Assembly: GCA_031276965.1 (NCBI GenBank)
Contig: JAISMC010000004.1
Span: 1-37,452 of the forward strand
Reading direction: 5' to 3'
From: Treponema sp.
GTDB lineage: Bacteria; Spirochaetota; Spirochaetia; Treponematales; Breznakiellaceae
DNA length: 37,452 nt
Shown here one piece after another: positions 2,652 to 21,626 of the stretch (position 1 is its first letter; the number at the start of each line of letters is the position of its first letter). The notes below the pieces were generated by a model. It saw nothing but the letters and a program-made list of their open reading frames with translations, ran no database searches and was not told the origin of the DNA. A program made the position numbers and the translations under genes.

Positions 2652-3952
2652 TGATGGATGCTCCCCCAGCCGAACTGTTTCTTATTGTAATCCTTATTGT
2701 GATAAGCGGCTTCTTTTCTTCGATGGAGACCGCCCTGATATCCTCCCGGAAATCAAAACTCAGGTCCAGGGCCCTGGAAGAAAATTCAAACTATAAAAAA
2801 GTTTTGGATATCGCGGAGCATCCCGGTCCTTTTCTCTTTATCTTCCATGCCTGGATAGGCTTTCTCAGAATCTCCGCGGGAATTATCGGCGGTTTCCGGA
2901 TAGACCGGTACTTTGATGCGGCCTTTGACGCATCCGTACCATTCAGCCCCCATCTCAGGCTGCTTATCCTCTGCATGACTGCCCTGCTTATCACCCTGGG
3001 GGCCATATTCCTGGGAGAGCTTATCCCCCGGCAGATCGCCCTGGCGTCGCCGGAAAAGCTCCTGGCGGGGGTCCTGCCCTTCATCAAGATCCTCGGCTTC
3101 TTCCTCCGGCCCCTTATGATCCTCACCGCCGGATGCTCGGATCTGATTTACCGGATCCTTCGTATTGAAGCCTCCGAACCGGGAATAACCGAGGATGAGC
3201 TGCGGCTTGCCCTGATGGAGGGGGAAAAATCGGGGGTCGTGGAGAGCGAAGAACGGACCATGGTGGAGGGGGTCTTCTACCTGGGGGACCGGCCGGTAGG
3301 GGCCTTTATGACCCATCGATCGGACATCGCCTGGCTTGCCCTTGACGCCGGCGCCGGAGAAGCCCGGAAGGCGGCTCTGGAAAACGGGGCCCGGCAGTAC
3401 TTTCCCATCGCCGACGGAAGACTGGACGAGGTGGTGGGCATAGTTTCGGCCCGGGATATACTGGCGGCCCTGCTGGAGAAACCCTGGAAGGGGCTCAAGG
3501 CGATTATGACCCCGCCCCGCTTTATCCCGGAAACCATGTCCGCCCTTAGGGCCTTTGAAGTGTTTAAGCGGGAGGAAACGGATTTTCTCTGCGTTATGGA
3601 TGAATATGGCGGTTTTGCGGGGGCCCTTTCGGTACAGGACCTAATCGAAGAAATTGTCGGTGAATTTGAGGTGGACAAGGAAGAGATTCTCCCCCGGGAG
3701 GATGGAACTTTCAGCGCCGGAGGGGGCGCCAATATTGATGATGTGGCCGAAGCCCTGGCGGTGGATCTGCCGGAACATCAGGAATACCACACCCTGGCGG
3801 GGTTTATCCTGGAACTGGCGGGGGAGATCCCCAGGCCGGGGATGGTTTTTGAGTGGCGGGGATTCAGGTTCAAAATTACCGCCATGGACGGAAACCGGAT
3901 CGACAGGGTAGCGATCTATCCCCCGGAAACGGCCAAAACGGAAAATCTTTAG
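2651..3952 (+). CDS. CNNM/CorC (HlyC) family protein: DUF21 membrane domain, CBS pair, CorC C-terminal domain
   Basis: FSSMETALISSRKSKLRSRALEE, TEDELRLALMEGEKSGVVESEERTMVEGVFYLGDRPVGAFMTHR, DEYGGFAGALSVQDLIEEIVGEF. Confidence 0.9.
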   Translation: MMDAPPAELFLIVILIVISGFFSSMETALISSRKSKLRSRALEENSNYKKVLDIAEHPGPFLFIFHAWIGFLRISAGIIGGFRIDRYFDAAFDASVPFSPHLRLLILCMTALLITLGAIFLGELIPRQIALASPEKLLAGVLPFIKILGFFLRPLMILTAGCSDLIYRILRIEASEPGITEDELRLALMEGEKSGVVESEERTMVEGVFYLGDRPVGAFMTHRSDIAWLALDAGAGEARKAALENGARQYFPIADGRLDEVVGIVSARDILAALLEKPWKGLKAIMTPPRFIPETMSALRAFEVFKREETDFLCVMDEYGGFAGALSVQDLIEEIVGEFEVDKEEILPREDGTFSAGGGANIDDVAEALAVDLPEHQEYHTLAGFILELAGEIPRPGMVFEWRGFRFKITAMDGNRIDRVAIYPPETAKTENL

Positions 3953-7509: not shown

Positions 7510-7656
7510 CCAAAGAAGACGCCCTGCTTGCCCAAGAAAACGCCTTGTTGTCCGAAGAAAACGCCACAGATTCTTAAGAAAATGACCCGGATTCTTAAGA
7601 AAACGGGATGGATTCTTAAGAAAATGGCCCATTTTCTTGAGAAAACGGGATAGATT
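7510..7656. repeat. Array 1: seven contiguous imperfect 21-bp repeats (type cttaagaaaacgggatggatt)
   Basis: Units: ccaaagaagacgccctgcttg / cccaagaaaacgccttgttgt / ccgaagaaaacgccacagatt / cttaagaaaatgacccggatt / cttaagaaaacgggatggatt / cttaagaaaatggcccatttt / cttgagaaaacgggatagatt. Confidence 0.92.
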
Positions 7657-13110: not shown

Positions 13111-15585
13111 TTACCGCTTCCCCGTAATGGTGCCGCCGGTGTAGTCGAGGCGGCCTTCCAGAATGGGGGAGCCGCCGCCGTACTTCGCCCTGCTGCGGTC
13201 GCCGCAAAAGAAGGCCGCGCCCCTGTCGCCGGAAACCTTGTTGGCCTTGTCCCCCGCGCCGGAGCCGTATATCGTACCGCCCTCCATGGTGAAGGTTCCG
13301 CGGCTTATATGAACGCCGCCGCCGTAGCCGTAACGGGCGGCATTAGCGGCAATCTCCCCGCCGGACATGGTGAAGGTCCCGCTGTTCATAAACACGCCGC
13401 CGCCGTTATAAGCGGCGGAATTGCCGCAGATCTTCCCGCCGGACAGGGTGAAGGTCCCGCCGTCCACCGATACGCCGCCGCCGGCGGCTTCGGCGGAATT
13501 GCCGCTAATCTCCCCGCCGGACATGATGAGGATTCCGCTGTGTACCGACACGCCGCCGCCCCCGGCGCCGGAGTTGCCGCTGACGGCCCCGCCGGACAGG
13601 ACGAAGGCTCCGCTACCCACATACACGCCGCCCCCCCCGGCGCCGGTGGAATTGCCGCTGACGGTCCCGCCGGACATGGCGAAGCTTCCGCTGCCCACAA
13701 ATACGCCGCCCCCGCCATAACCGTAACGGATGGAATTGCCGCCAATGGTCCCGCCGGACATGGTGAAGCTTCCGTCCCCCACAAATACGCCGCCCCCGGC
13801 GGTGCCGCCGCCGCCGCAATTACCGCCGATGATCCCGCCGGACATGGTAAAGGTTCCGCCGCCCACATACACGCCCCCGGCGCCGCCATTGCCGCCGCCA
13901 TCCCCGCCCCCGCTGCGATTACCGCCGATAATCCCGCCGTCCATGGTGAAGCTTCCGCCCTCCACATACACGCCGCCGCCGCCGGAATCGCCGGTGGCAT
14001 TGCCGCTGACCTCCCCGCCGGAGAGGACGAAGGCTCCGCCATCTATATACACGCCGCCGCCGTAACCGCCTTCGCCTTCAGCGGAATTGCCGCTGACGGT
14101 CCCGCCGGACATGGTAAAGGTTCCGCCGCTTACATACACGCCGCCGCCGGAGCCGTAGCGGACGAAATTGCCGCTGACGGCCCCGCCGGACAGGACGAAG
14201 GCCCCGCCGCCCACATACACGCCCCCGGCGCCGGTGCTGCCCCGGCCGCCGTCGCCGGAATTGCCGCTGACGGCCCCGCCGGACATGGTGAAGCTTCCGC
14301 CGTTCACATACACGCCCCCGGTCCCGCGGATCTCCCCGCCGGAGAGATTACAGATTCCGCCGTCCACATGCAGGCCCACCACTATGTCCCCGGTAAGGTC
14401 CCCGGCACTGCCGCCACCGGCGATGTCGGAATCGCCGCAGATAATCCCGCCGGACATGGTGAAGCTTCCGCCGCCCACATATACGCCCCCGGCGCAGATC
14501 TCCCCGCCGGACAGGATAAAGGCCCCGCCGCCCAGATATACGCCGCCGCCGAGGGTCCCGCCGGACATGGTAAAGATTCCGCCGTCCACATATACGCCGC
14601 CGGTCCCGCGGATCTCCCCGCCGGACATGGTGAAGGTTCCGCCGTTTACATACAGGCCGCCGGCGCCGCCGGCGGAATCGCCGCGGATCTCCCCCCCCTC
14701 CGCCATAATGAGGGTTCCGCCGGCGACGCTTATGGTCTCCGCAGCCTCAAAGGCGATATCCCGCAGAATCAGGGTTTCCCCGGCGGCGGCGGTAAAAGAA
14801 GAGCCGGTCAGGGCGCTTTCGTCCGCGCCGCCGCCCCGCAGGGAGACGGCCACCCCGCTGTGGGCCTGTTCAAAGGAGAGGCCCCCGGGGAAGCTTCCGC
14901 TTATGTTGACAATATAGTTTTTGTCGTCCCCCCCGCGGTCGATGGCCCGGACAGCCTCGTTCCACTGCGCCTCGTTTGTTACCTCGAAGCTCCGGGCGAT
15001 GGCCGCCCCCGGACCAAAATCTTCGGCGTCCCACCGGAGCGCCGGCCGCGCCCGCTCTCCGGCTTCAGCCCGGACCTCTGCCCCCGCTTCGGCTTCCCGT
15101 ATTCGTCCCTCCCCTTCCGCCACGCCCCCCGCCGTTCCACAGCCGGCCAGAACGGACAGCAGCAAAGCGGCCAGCGTTCCCGCGGCGCATAAGCGGCCCT
15201 TCTTTACCGCATCCGTACTACGGGCCGCGGATTTTAAGCCGGAATCCACGGATTTTAAGCCGGAATCCATGGATTTTAAGCCGGAATCCATGGATTTTAA
15301 GCCGGAATCCATGGATTTTAAGTCAGAATCCACGGATTTTAAGTCAGAATCCACGGATTTTAAGCCGGAATCCACGGATTCTAAGCCGGAATCCACGGAT
15401 TTTAAGTCAGAATCCACGGATTTTAAGCCGGAATCCATACCGGATGACCGCTCCGGCGCAAGGCCGGGGCGCTGCGCAGGACCCGCCGCGCCGGGCTCCG
15501 GGGACTGCGCCCTGCAGGGGGGAAGGCGGGGTAACTGTTTACAGGATAAAGAATTACGGAACGCTGGGGCGGGCCCTTGCTTCAT
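13111..15585 (-). CDS. Repetitive right-handed beta-helix (Pmp-like) predicted lipoprotein
   Basis: About 19 imperfect copies of GGGVYVxGGxFTMSGGxIxGN; LCAAGTLAALLLSVLAGC lipobox; ATG at 15585 preceded by GGGAGGTG. True start uncertain: alternatives lie inside the 21-bp array. Confidence 0.8.
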   Translation of the reverse strand: MKQGPAPAFRNSLSCKQLPRLPPCRAQSPEPGAAGPAQRPGLAPERSSGMDSGLKSVDSDLKSVDSGLESVDSGLKSVDSDLKSVDSDLKSMDSGLKSMDSGLKSMDSGLKSVDSGLKSAARSTDAVKKGRLCAAGTLAALLLSVLAGCGTAGGVAEGEGRIREAEAGAEVRAEAGERARPALRWDAEDFGPGAAIARSFEVTNEAQWNEAVRAIDRGGDDKNYIVNISGSFPGGLSFEQAHSGVAVSLRGGGADESALTGSSFTAAAGETLILRDIAFEAAETISVAGGTLIMAEGGEIRGDSAGGAGGLYVNGGTFTMSGGEIRGTGGVYVDGGIFTMSGGTLGGGVYLGGGAFILSGGEICAGGVYVGGGSFTMSGGIICGDSDIAGGGSAGDLTGDIVVGLHVDGGICNLSGGEIRGTGGVYVNGGSFTMSGGAVSGNSGDGGRGSTGAGGVYVGGGAFVLSGGAVSGNFVRYGSGGGVYVSGGTFTMSGGTVSGNSAEGEGGYGGGVYIDGGAFVLSGGEVSGNATGDSGGGGVYVEGGSFTMDGGIIGGNRSGGGDGGGNGGAGGVYVGGGTFTMSGGIIGGNCGGGGTAGGGVFVGDGSFTMSGGTIGGNSIRYGYGGGGVFVGSGSFAMSGGTVSGNSTGAGGGGVYVGSGAFVLSGGAVSGNSGAGGGGVSVHSGILIMSGGEISGNSAEAAGGGVSVDGGTFTLSGGKICGNSAAYNGGGVFMNSGTFTMSGGEIAANAARYGYGGGVHISRGTFTMEGGTIYGSGAGDKANKVSGDRGAAFFCGDRSRAKYGGGSPILEGRLDYTGGTITGKR
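15231..15440. repeat. Array 2: ten contiguous 21-bp repeats (attttaagccggaatccaygg / attttaagtcagaatccacgg)
   Basis: Exact 21-bp period over 210 bp; on the minus strand encodes (L[K/E]S[V/M]DS[G/D])n upstream of the lipoprotein signal. Confidence 0.97.
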
Positions 15586-17594: not shown

Positions 17595-18221
17595 ATGCAG
17601 GAGCCTATTTTGAAATGCGATGTGATTCTGGCGGGAGTGGGCGGACAGGGGGTGCTTTCCATTGCGGCCATTATCGCCCGGGCGGCGGTTAAGGAGGGAT
17701 TCCTGATGCGCCAGTCCGAAGTACACGGCATGGCCCAGCGGGGCGGGGCGGTGCTGGCCCATCTCCGCATCGCCGGCGGCCCCATTGCCTCGGATCTGAC
17801 GCCCCGGGGCGGGGCGGACCTCATCATCTCCATGGAACCCATGGAGAGCCTCCGTTATGCCGCATGGCTTGCCCCGGAGGGAACCCTGATTACCGCGGCG
17901 GAGCGCTTCATCAATATCCCCGGTTACCCCAGCCTGCCCCTCATCCTGGAGAGCATACAAAAATTCCCCCGGCGCCGGATTATCGAAGCCGCGGGCCTCG
18001 CCAGGGAAGCGGGATTTGCCCGGGCGGTAAACATGGTCATGGTGGGGGCGGCCTCCCCCTTTCTCCCCATTCCGGCGGAAACCCTGGAAGAGGCCATTGC
18101 GGAGATGTTCGCATCGAAGTTTTCGGACTCCGGCGGAGTCCGGGACTCTGCCGGAATCCGGGGCTCGGTGGCGGACGCCAACCGGAGGGCCTTCAAAATG
18201 GGAAGAGAGGCTGCAAAGTGA
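17595..18221 (+). CDS. iorB: Indolepyruvate ferredoxin oxidoreductase beta subunit
   Basis: LKCDVILAGVGGQGVLSIAAIIARAAVKEGFLMRQSEVHGMAQRGGAVLAHLRI. Confidence 0.93.
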   Translation: MQEPILKCDVILAGVGGQGVLSIAAIIARAAVKEGFLMRQSEVHGMAQRGGAVLAHLRIAGGPIASDLTPRGGADLIISMEPMESLRYAAWLAPEGTLITAAERFINIPGYPSLPLILESIQKFPRRRIIEAAGLAREAGFARAVNMVMVGAASPFLPIPAETLEEAIAEMFASKFSDSGGVRDSAGIRGSVADANRRAFKMGREAAK

Positions 18222-19531
18222 ACTACCAGTACTGGAACGAACAATTTGAAAAGATGCCCCGGCGGGATCTGGAGGCCTGGCAGCTGGAGAAACTTAGGGA
18301 GACGGCGGGCTTTGCCCTGAGGACCCCCTTCTACAAAGAACGTCTTGCCGGAACAGGCATCGGGGAGCCCGGGGACATTAAAACCCTGGAGGATCTAAAG
18401 CGCATTCCCTTCACCACCAAGGAAGATCTCCGGAGGGGGTTCCCCTACGGCTTTCTCAGCATTTCCCGGGATGAAGTGATCCGGCTCCATGCCTCAAGCG
18501 GCACCACCGGCGCTCCAACCACCATATACTTTAGCCGGGAGGACCTTGCCCGGTGGACCGGCTTTGTGGCCCGCTGCATCTATAGCACGGGATGTAACAA
18601 AACCGACGTATTTCAGAACATGATCACCTACGGCCTCTTTACCGGAGGCCTGGGCTTCCATGCGGGGGGCGAAGCGGTGGGGATGCTGGTGATCCCTTCG
18701 GGGCCGGGAAACACCACCCGCCAGTTCCGCCTGATGCAGGACTTCGGCACTACCGTGGTCCACGCCACCCCCAGCTTCCTGCTCCATGTGGAGGCCAGGA
18801 TGCGGGAGGAAGGGATAAACCGGGACCGTATCAGGCTGAAGCGGGCCTTCGCCGGGGCGGAACCCTACTCGGAAGATACCCGCCGGCGCATCGAAGAACT
18901 GCTCCGTATCGACGTGTACAATTCCTACGGCCTTTCCGAGATGAACGGCCCCGGCGTGGCCTTTGAGTGCCAGGCCAAGAACGGCCTTCATATCTGGGAG
19001 GACGGTTATATTGCGGAGATCATCAACCCCGATACCCTGGAACCGGTGAAGGACGGTGAAACGGGGGAACTGGTGCTGACCATACTTTGCCGGGAAGCCA
19101 CCCCCATACTGCGCTACCGTACCAGGGACCTCTCCGCCTTCTACACCGGGCCCTGCCCCTGCGGCAGAACCCACCGGCGGCTCCGCCGCATCACCGGCCG
19201 TACCGACGACATGCTTATCATCAACGGGGTCAACGTATTCCCCAGCCAGATTGAAGAGGCGATCATGGCCATAAAGGAGGCGGGGAACAATTACCTTATT
19301 GTGGTGGAGAAGGAGGGGGTCCTGGACAAGCTTACCGTAAAAACCGAGGTGGGACCGGATATCTTTATGGACGACGCCCGGCCTCTCAACGCCCTCAGGG
19401 AACGGATCCGCAAAACCATTCAGGCTTCCATCACCGTCAATCCCAGGGTGGAACTGCACGAACCGGGGAGCCTCCCGGTAAGCGAGGGCAAGGCCCTGCG
19501 CGTCCAGGACAAGAGGCCGAAGGATCTATAG
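18218..19531 (+). CDS. paaK: Phenylacetate-CoA ligase family protein (copy 1)
   Basis: GTG start overlapping the iorB stop (GTGA); [90 protein letters not shown]. Confidence 0.95.
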   Translation: MNYQYWNEQFEKMPRRDLEAWQLEKLRETAGFALRTPFYKERLAGTGIGEPGDIKTLEDLKRIPFTTKEDLRRGFPYGFLSISRDEVIRLHASSGTTGAPTTIYFSREDLARWTGFVARCIYSTGCNKTDVFQNMITYGLFTGGLGFHAGGEAVGMLVIPSGPGNTTRQFRLMQDFGTTVVHATPSFLLHVEARMREEGINRDRIRLKRAFAGAEPYSEDTRRRIEELLRIDVYNSYGLSEMNGPGVAFECQAKNGLHIWEDGYIAEIINPDTLEPVKDGETGELVLTILCREATPILRYRTRDLSAFYTGPCPCGRTHRRLRRITGRTDDMLIINGVNVFPSQIEEAIMAIKEAGNNYLIVVEKEGVLDKLTVKTEVGPDIFMDDARPLNALRERIRKTIQASITVNPRVELHEPGSLPVSEGKALRVQDKRPKDL

Positions 19532-19681: not shown

Positions 19682-19850
19682 CGGGTTCGCGCCGTTCGTG
19701 GGTTTTTACCTCCCCCCGCAAATCGCATAGTCAGCGCTCTTTTTTCCGCAAGCGTTCCCTATATGGCGTACTCCGCACATTCCGGCCCGGAACCAGCGGG
19801 CTGATTACACTAAATGATCTGATAAGAAAAAAAGACGGGAAGAAGAATAT

Positions 19851-19959
19851 GAACCGCCAAGGCGCACAAAGGTACACGAAGGACTAGATTCTCAGGCTGT
19901 ATTCCTCCTTTGTGCGCCGCGAACCGAAGGTTCGGCTTCGCCCTTGTGGTAAAATTCTT
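19851..19959. repeat. Foldback element B (imperfect inverted repeat)
   Basis: Left arm gaaccgccaaggcgcacaaaggtacacgaagga; right arm tcctcctttgtgcgccgCGAACCgaaGGTTCGgcttcgcccttgtggtaaaattctt. Confidence 0.75.
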
Positions 19960-19991
19960 AAAAATGCTTTTTAGCCTAATGAAGGTACTGA

Positions 19992-20159
19992 TCAGTTCCG
20001 GCCTGGAATTAGTCAGTTCTGACTTAGAACTGATCAGTTCTGATCTGGAATCAGTCAGTTCCGGCTTGGAATCAGTCAGTTCTGATCTGGAATTAGTCAG
20101 TTTTAACTTAGAACTAGTCAGTTCCGGCCCGGAATCAGTCAGTTCCGGCTTGGAATCAG
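19992..20159. repeat. Array 3: eight contiguous 21-bp repeats (tcagttccggcttggaatcag / tcagttctgacttagaactga types)
   Basis: Exact 21-bp period over 168 bp; in ORF 19910..20203 it reads (LE[S/L][V/I]SS[G/D])n. Confidence 0.95.
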
Positions 20160-20188
20160 CCGTCTCCGGCCCAGCGTTCCGGAGACGG
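20160..20188. other. Strong hairpin directly abutting array 3
   Basis: CCGTCTCCGG-cccagcgtt-CCGGAGACGG, perfect 10-bp arms. Confidence 0.85.
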
Positions 20189-20324
20189 GCCGGATTTGGA
20201 TAGGACGCCCGCCCGTACCTTGGGGCGGCAGAATGTACAGGGCCTTCCCCTGCCTCTAGCGGTTCCGGCGGGGCTGTGTTATAGTTTTAGTGCCAGTCAC
20301 ATCTCTAGTGCAAAGGGGGGCGCA

Positions 20325-21626
20325 GTGATCTTCAATCCTGAGTATGAGTGTATGGAACGGGGGGCGCGGGCGCAGCTTCAGCTTGCCCGGCTTAAAAATC
20401 TGGCCGAGATGCTTTACGAGCGGGTGCCCTTTTACCGGAATAAGATGGAGGCCCTGGGGATACGATCCGGGGACATCCACTGCCTCAGGGACATTGAAAA
20501 ACTTCCCTTTACCACCAAGGACGACCTGAGGGAAAATTACCCCCACGGCCTTTTGGCCTGCCCGAAGGACCGGATCGTGGAGGTCCATATGAGCTCCGGA
20601 ACTACGGGAAAGCCCGTGGTGGACGAATATACCAAAAACGACATCGATATTTGGCGTGAATCCATGGCCCGGACCATGGCCGCCGGGGGCTGTACCAAGG
20701 ACGACATCGTCCAGAACTGTTACGGCTACGGCCTCTTTACCGGCGGACCCGGCGCCCACTACGGAGCTATGACGATAGGGGCGGAGGTCCTCCCCATGTC
20801 ATCGGGCAATACCGCCCGTCAGCTCATGGTGCTGCAGGACTTCGGCTCTACCATGCTTACCTGTACGCCCTCCTACGCGCTCTATATGTCCGAGGAAGCC
20901 GCCGACGCCGGTATTGATCTAAAAAAGCTGCCCATCTGCAAGGGCTGTTTCGGGGCGGAGCCCTGGAGCGAAAATATGCGGAAGGAAATCGAAGACCGTT
21001 ACGGCATGAAGGCCTACGACATTTACGGCCTTACGGAGATCGTCGGCCCCGGGGTTTCCTTTGAATGTGAAGCCCAGAACGGCCTTCACATCAACGAAGA
21101 TCTTTTCTACCCGGAGATCATCGATCCCGAAACGGGAAAGACGCTGCCTGACGGCGAAAAGGGGGAACTGGTCTTTACCACCCTTACCAAAGAGGGAACC
21201 CCCATACTCCGTTACCGGACTAGGGACATCACCTTTCTGATGCGGGAGCCCTGCTCCTGCGGCAGAACCACCGTTAAGATGCACCGCCTCTTTGGCCGTA
21301 CCGACGATATGCTGATTATCCGGGGGGTCAACGTATTCCCCAGCCAGATAGAGCATGCCCTCTTCGAGATTGAAGGGACCGAGCCCCAGTACCTGATAGT
21401 GGTTAACCGGGGAGATACCTACCTGGACGAGGTGGAGCTCCAGGTTGAGGTAAAGCAGGAATTCTTCAGCGACGAGACTAAAAACCTGGAGGTCCTGCGG
21501 AACAAGATCGAAGGGGTAATGAAGTCCAAGCTGCAGATCAGCCTCAAGGTAAAACTGGTGGAGCCCAAGACCATCGAAAGATCCATCGGCAAGGCAAAGC
21601 GGGTCATCGACAACCGGAAAATTTAA
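20325..21626 (+). CDS. paaK: Phenylacetate-CoA ligase family protein (copy 2)
   Basis: GTG after aaagggggg; [70 protein letters not shown]. Confidence 0.95.

What the first reader, a model, noticed from the sequence alone, without database searches (positions are those of the whole stretch)
19992..20159. Array 3 units show compensatory changes in a conserved dyad
Each of the eight units has complementary arms around a 5-nt centre: TTCC/GGAA, TTCT/AGAA, TTCT/GGAA (wobble), TTCC/GGAA, TTCT/GGAA (wobble), TTTT/AGAA (wobble), TTCC/GGAA, TTCC/GGAA. Unit 2 extends to a perfect 8-bp stem, TCAGTTCT-gactt-AGAACTGA. Paired C-G to T-A substitutions among tandem copies suggest selection on a hairpin or dyad, while leucine, serine and aspartate codons also vary synonymously in the ORF frame. 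The array may be a train of small RNA hairpins, a phased binding array, a heptad peptide, or a combination.
Basis: partly seen in the sequence, partly recalled or inferred. Interest (0 to 1): 0.78.

Follow-up and report, generated by a model that had tools for sequence, protein, structure and literature searches.

The report
Genome-wide 21-bp palindromic repeat arrays
The array is one of dozens of non-coding DNA repeat arrays in the genome of an uncultured termite-gut Treponema, each built of near-palindromic units exactly 21 bases long whose sequences differ between arrays while the mirror symmetry is kept; I found no published description of this repeat family.

Summary
Array 3 is real: eight exact 21-nt units with the arms described. 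The claimed compensatory change (arm position 8 with 14) is not covariation: mutual information 0.31 bits, P=0.43 in array 3, and 0.02 bits, P=0.28 in 64 related units. The tight linkage is 8 with 10, two bases that cannot pair. A hidden dyad on the same axis does covary, between arrays: positions 2-6 with 16-20, both sides changed at 15 of 15 pairs, 0/500 shuffles, while the inner pairs do not covary. Array 3 belongs to a genome-wide class. In 513 kb of this termite-gut Treponema MAG, tandem arrays are almost only 21 bp long. They are intergenic (4 of 41 inside an ORF against coding density 0.86), without orientation preference, with 1122 substitutions but 3 indels. A covariance model finds them in 10 of 25 same-family genomes and in 0 of 16 from other families. 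Nothing supports coding, and the two strands fold equally well, so the feature is DNA-level. I favour a palindromic satellite kept symmetrical by amplification and templated arm correction. A binding array is the main rival.

The parts
19992..20159 (+). Array 3: eight 21-nt units (T CAGTT YYGRYYYRG AAYYR R); partial ninth copy to 20171
20013..20033 (+). Unit 2, the most palindromic unit (TCAGTTCTGACTTAGAACTGA); with the start of unit 3 it makes the 16-bp palindrome AGAACTGATCAGTTCT
   Evidence: sequence shows directly
19982..20001 (+). 5' edge of array 3 with a second copy of the junction palindrome (ACTGATCAGT)
20160..20194 (+). Inverted repeat just after array 3 (CCGTCTCCGG...CCGGAGACGG), a possible terminator or unrelated hairpin
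   Evidence: function not tested
15228..15437 (-). Array 2: ten units TGGATTCYGRCTTARAATCCR of the same family, overlapping the 5' end of a predicted lipoprotein ORF (13111-15585, minus)
7513..7656 (+). Array 1: 21-nt units AAGAAAATGACCCGGATTCTT (arms AGAA/TTCT) between convergent genes
18218..19531 (+). Left neighbour of array 3: AMP-binding ligase (phenylacetate-CoA ligase type)
20325..21626 (+). Right neighbour of array 3: a second AMP-binding ligase of the same type

Best explanation
Array 3 is a worn member of a dispersed, non-coding satellite family of termite-gut Treponema-like spirochaetes. The unit is a 21-bp quasi-palindrome (superfamily consensus about TNGATTCTGACTCAGAATCNN) repeated head to tail, so dyads recur every 21 bp. 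Shown: the strict 21-bp period, intergenic placement, strand symmetry, scarcity of indels, arms that differ between arrays but stay complementary, and restriction to one family of genomes. Inferred: the arrays exist and act as DNA. Units fold as hairpins in single-stranded DNA during replication. This promotes unit gain and loss by slippage, and when one arm mutates, template switching copies the change to the other arm. That keeps dyads while arm sequences drift. Blocks such as CCGG and CTGA/TCAG, dyad images of each other, are exchanged whole. This also explains why neighbouring loop bases 8 and 10 are linked while pair 8-14 is not. Any benefit to the cell is unproven.
For: Period: two unselected samples of the own genome (251,651 + 261,012 bases) gave 29 runs of period 21 plus 42-bp multiples, against 3 of 15, 1 of 24 and 1 of 30 in the range 10-60. 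Covariation: in the loop-anchored register 32 of 55 arm pairs are Watson-Crick over 11 array types; permuting arms gives P=0.0002, and this axis scores 2.91 against at most 1.73 for the other 20. Alignment A2: 88.5% paired against 66.1% shuffled, all 15 pairs changed on both sides, 0/500 on five measures, best at slide 0; inner pairs show none. Arms vary 30 times less than loops within related arrays (4/640 against 109/576). DNA level: both strands fold better than column-permuted controls (mean z -2.4 and -2.3), TGAC strand more stable in 11 of 20. Intergenic: 4 of 41 inside called ORFs, P=2e-27; 11 tandem, 6 convergent, 6 divergent. Clade-limited: 10 of 25 family genomes against 0 of 16 others. 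Quasi-palindrome template switching is a known mutation mechanism in E. coli (PMC7202029).
Against: Indels are nearly absent (3 against 1122 substitutions), which a purely mutational process does not obviously explain and which suggests selection on spacing. No template-switch event was observed directly. Array relatedness inflates the covariation statistics. The CM-found arrays are biased towards the dyad. Two of the period-21 arrays found (C120, and to a degree C119) lack a full dyad on the common axis.
Confidence: 0.48

Rival explanations
1. Phased protein-binding array: each palindrome binds a symmetric protein (nucleoid, segregation or regulatory), and 21 bp, two helical turns at 10.5 bp, puts all sites on one face so that binding is cooperative; arm changes are selected in pairs.
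For: Strict 21 bp with 3 indels per 1122 substitutions; arms conserved within arrays; strand symmetry; placement in any orientation.
Against: Arm sequences differ widely between arrays, so one sequence-specific protein cannot read them all; a relative (G003) has arrays of 22, 23 and 24 bp, which breaks helical phasing; no candidate protein identified.
Confidence: 0.28
2. Train of RNA hairpins: arrays are transcribed and act as structured RNA (stability, termination, sponge).
For: Array 3 + strand folds with z -5.4; pairs covary; G-T combinations are frequent at positions 8-14 and 9-13 on the TGAC strand.
Against: No strand asymmetry over 20 arrays (11 of 20); orientation to genes is random, including divergent intergenic regions; no Rfam match; array 3 folds into one long hairpin, not a train.
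Confidence: 0.08
3. Heptad peptide: the arrays encode DS[DG]L[KE]S[MV]-type heptads, an amphipathic coiled coil.
For: Period is 7 codons; DSxLKSM has hydrophobic residues at a/d spacing; array 2 lies in frame at the start of a lipoprotein ORF.
Against: Synonymous ratio in the open frame (1.24) is no higher than in a closed frame (1.31); two in-frame stops in the G079 C231 array; 36 of 37 arrays with any open frame against 34.2 expected by permutation, and a 19-unit array with none; only 4 of 41 arrays inside called ORFs; periods of 22-23 in G003; ORF 19910-20203 has no Pfam match and was not called as coding.
Confidence: 0.06
4. REP/RAYT-like mobile palindromes spread by a Y1 (HUH) transposase.
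For: Dispersed extragenic palindromes; the own genome has one Y1_Tnp gene.
Against: Y1_Tnp present in 11 of 13 array-bearing and 15 of 26 array-less family genomes, P=0.15; absent from G005 and G111, which carry arrays; no GTAG/CGTC tag in the unit consensus; head-to-tail tandem architecture.
Confidence: 0.06

Closest known systems
Non-coding satellite families of prokaryotes (Subirana and Messeguer 2019, PMC6749651; Leptospira interrogans, Methanocella conradii)
   Same: Tandem, non-coding, dispersed through one genome, clade-restricted.
   Different: Those families have longer repeats (37-69 nt by the family codes in that paper) and no dyad is described; here the unit is 21 nt, quasi-palindromic, with covarying arms.
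REP/BIME extragenic palindromes (GTAG/CGTC superfamilies, PMC3733652)
   Same: Short extragenic palindromes, many copies.
   Different: Here no GTAG/CGTC tag, head-to-tail 21-bp arrays, arm sequence differing between arrays, no significant Y1_Tnp association.
PARCEL palindromic amphipathic repeat coding elements (PMC2996958)
   Same: Tandem repeats with dyad symmetry in the DNA.
   Different: PARCELs are coding, 25 aa (75 nt) per repeat; these are 21 nt and show no coding signal.
Quasi-palindrome template-switch mutation (E. coli, PMC7202029)
   Same: A mechanism that makes inverted-repeat arms more alike in one event.
   Different: Known at single sites; here it would act repeatedly on tandem arrays.

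Membership tests
Prokaryotic non-coding satellite family | At least 4 tandem repeats of 10-200 nt | tested here: met
   Most arrays have 4-22 units of 21 nt
Prokaryotic non-coding satellite family | Non-coding and dispersed over the genome | tested here: met
   4 of 41 in called ORFs; about 19 loci by model in the own genome
REP/BIME | Extragenic palindromes in high copy | tested here: met
REP/BIME | GTAG or CGTC tag at the stem base | tested here: not met
   Absent from the array consensus sequences
REP/BIME | Association with a RAYT (Y1_Tnp) gene | tested here: inconclusive
   11/13 against 15/26 genomes, P=0.15; G005 and G111 have arrays without it
PARCEL | 25-residue (75-nt) coding repeat | tested here: not met
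   21-nt unit, no coding signal
CRISPR array | Identical repeats separated by unique spacers | tested here: not met
   No unique spacers; 7-9 nt loops recur within and between arrays
Structured RNA element | Covarying base pairs | tested here: met
   Outer pairs only; inner pairs not
Structured RNA element | Better fold on the functional strand and defined orientation to genes | tested here: not met
   11 of 20 arrays; random orientation
Structured RNA element | Transcription | not testable with these tools
   No expression data available
Coding heptad repeat | Excess of synonymous change in the reading frame | tested here: not met
   1.24 in the open frame against 1.31 in a closed frame
Protein-binding array | Binding by a specific protein | not testable with these tools
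   Needs a pull-down or ChIP

The most novel reading that the evidence does not exclude
A chromosome-wide system of phased dyads in which geometry (a dyad every 21 bp, either strand, any arm sequence) and not sequence is recognised, for example by a structure-specific DNA-binding protein or as supercoil-driven cruciforms, organising the chromosome of these spirochaetes.
Probability: 0.18. Interest if true: 0.85.

Novelty: new variant of a known kind. Interest (0 to 1): 0.6.

Why it matters
Non-coding satellites are rare in bacteria (PMC6749651). Here one genome carries dozens of them with a single unit length, conserved mirror symmetry and changing sequence. Because array units diverge inside one genome, they give a natural record for asking whether paired changes in palindromes come from selection or from template switching, a question usually asked with reporter constructs. 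It is also a caution: compensatory changes in tandem copies can look like RNA structure or a peptide repeat when neither is supported.

Tried and rejected
Heptad coding. RNA strand preference. Rfam (none). RAYT association. A shared mobile element around the arrays: flanks share only other intergenic repeats and one 85-bp repeat between C132 and C20. Three 7-bp arrays in relatives (L208 3307, L209 1, L210 3539) have 21 as a multiple of 7 and were left out of the open-frame count; they remain in the 41 arrays and the substitution and indel totals (they add no mismatches or indels). No match in the literature searched for this repeat family.

Full report
What was checked. I number the unit 1-21 with T at position 1 (T CAGTT CTGACTTAG AACTG A is unit 2). 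The symmetry axis passes through position 11 and, equally, through the junction between units, because in a tandem array each arm can pair inside its unit or across the junction.

The claimed compensation. Pair 8-14 is C-G in four units, T-A in two and T-G in two. Mutual information is 0.31 bits with permutation P=0.43, and in 64 related units it is 0.02 bits, P=0.28. Position 8 is instead tightly linked with position 10 (TCC GGC against TCT GAC; 1.00 and 0.77 bits), two bases that cannot pair. So the substitutions within array 3 are two unit subtypes, not compensation. A four-base dyad on a free axis is also common by chance: 43% of random genomic 21-mers have one.

The family. Pattern searches found sister arrays in the window (15228-15437, minus strand), on other contigs of the same assembly, and in termite-gut Treponema MAGs. 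Scanning for tandem repeats of any period from 10 to 60 in two samples of the own genome (512,663 bases together) found periods of 21 and its multiple 42, with five exceptions of 15, 24 and 30. The arrays differ in sequence: AATCC-RT-GGATT, AATCT-NN-AGATT, TGTCT-TT-AGACA, AAGCT-AT-AGCTT, TTCTCC-GG-GGAGAA, TTCT-TA-AGAA, GGCGTT-AC-AACGCC, and AACTG-AT-CAGTT at two junctions of array 3. A relative, G003, is rich in such arrays and has periods of 21 (25 arrays), 23 (11), 22 (4) and 24 (2), many with dyads.

Covariation where it really is. With the register fixed by the loop motif (YGRC at positions 8-11) and not by the arms, 32 of 55 pairs at 2-6/16-20 are Watson-Crick over 11 array types. Permuting arms among types reaches this in 0.0002 of trials, and the axis stands out from the other 20 (2.91 against at most 1.73 matches of 5). 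On an alignment of 18 three-unit stretches, 88.5% of cells pair against 66.1% after shuffling, all 15 pairs carry changes on both sides, none of 500 shuffles reaches any measure, and sliding by 1-3 columns destroys the signal. Caveats: arrays are related to each other, and for array 1 the register in that alignment was set by the dyad. Among arrays found by period alone in the unselected sample, 5 of 7 types have a run of at least 5 arm pairs, against 13.4% of random 21-mers (P=0.0007).

Coding, RNA or DNA. Coding: the heptad frame shows no more synonymous change than a closed frame; stops occur in the G079 C231 array; open frames are as frequent as after column permutation (36 against 34.2 of 37) and a 19-unit array has none. 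Of 41 arrays, 4 lie inside called ORFs although 86% of the sampled genome is coding (P=2e-27); the gene caller is a simple codon-usage one written for this task. Array 2, at the start of a lipoprotein ORF, is the clearest exception. RNA: array 3 folds well on the + strand, but over 20 arrays both strands beat column-permuted controls equally (mean z -2.4 and -2.3; 11 of 20 better on the TGAC strand), and orientation to neighbouring genes is as expected for random intergenic placement (11 tandem, 6 convergent, 6 divergent). The symmetry is therefore a property of the DNA.

Length constraint. Wrap-around alignment of 43 arrays counts 1122 substitutions and 3 indels. Something keeps the unit length. 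In the own genome it equals two helical turns, which favours a protein-binding or structural reading; the 22-24 bp arrays of G003 argue that the length is inherited by copying and not set by helical phase.

Distribution. A covariance model of three units gives 87 matches at about 19 loci in the own genome, matches in 10 of 25 genomes of the same family and none in 16 genomes of other families of the order (Fisher P=0.003). Two single-contig family genomes (G160, G162), whose sizes match from memory the cultured T. azotonutricium and T. primitia, have none. Y1_Tnp transposase genes are not significantly associated.

Mechanism. I favour a non-coding palindromic satellite: hairpin-prone units are gained and lost by slippage and their arms are kept complementary by template switching between arms or units, a mechanism documented for quasi-palindromes in E. 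coli (PMC7202029). It explains arm drift with preserved dyads, whole-block exchange (CCGG, CTGA/TCAG), strand symmetry and random orientation. It does not by itself explain the lack of indels. The main rival is a phased binding array. The two make different predictions for strain-level comparisons and pull-downs.

Comparison with what is known. Non-coding satellites dispersed in a prokaryotic genome were reported as rare, in Leptospira interrogans and Methanocella conradii (PMC6749651); REP/BIME and PARCEL elements share palindromes but fail defining features tested here (tag; coding 75-nt unit). I file this as a new variant of prokaryotic non-coding satellites. The literature search was limited to open PMC papers.

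Noticed in passing
window 19840-19950; L029, L088 and L143 flanks: Another intergenic repeat class (AACCACGAAC.GACACGAAC / GGACCGTAGGTCCGGCGTGG) flanks several arrays, so these intergenic regions stack several kinds of repeat.
   Followed up: partly
L030 (C132) about 3590-3700 and L089 (C20) about 1630-1732: An 85-bp repeat, 91% identical, with the hairpin GAGTTTCGGCTCTGCCGAAACTC, lies just upstream of two different arrays.
   Followed up: no
window 13111-15585 minus and L030 about 3200-3370: A lipoprotein-like ORF of Gly-rich GGVYVxGGSFTMSGG repeats carries array 2 at its 5' end; a similar N-terminal stretch follows the C132 array, there without an intact signal peptide in frame.
   Followed up: partly
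L224 2313, L227 17299, L230 7398, L208 3307, L209 1, L210 3539: Perfect 7-bp tandem repeats (CTGTCTG, TCCCGGC, GTCGCCC, GTGAGTC, CCTGTGG, GAGCCGT) in relatives, a different class of minisatellite.
   Followed up: no
L225, L226, L231, L242 (G003): Arrays of period 23 with dyads of 5-7 bp in a relative, a sister class to the 21-bp arrays.
   Followed up: partly
L211 and L208: Arm variants within a single array look compensatory (AACTG/CAGTT and AACTT/AAGTT; AGCTA/TAGCT and AGCGA/TCGCT); a better place than array 3 to test within-array compensation.
   Followed up: no
window 18218-19531 and 20325-21626: Array 3 sits between two AMP-binding ligase genes of the same type, downstream of an indolepyruvate-oxidoreductase-like gene pair.
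   Followed up: no
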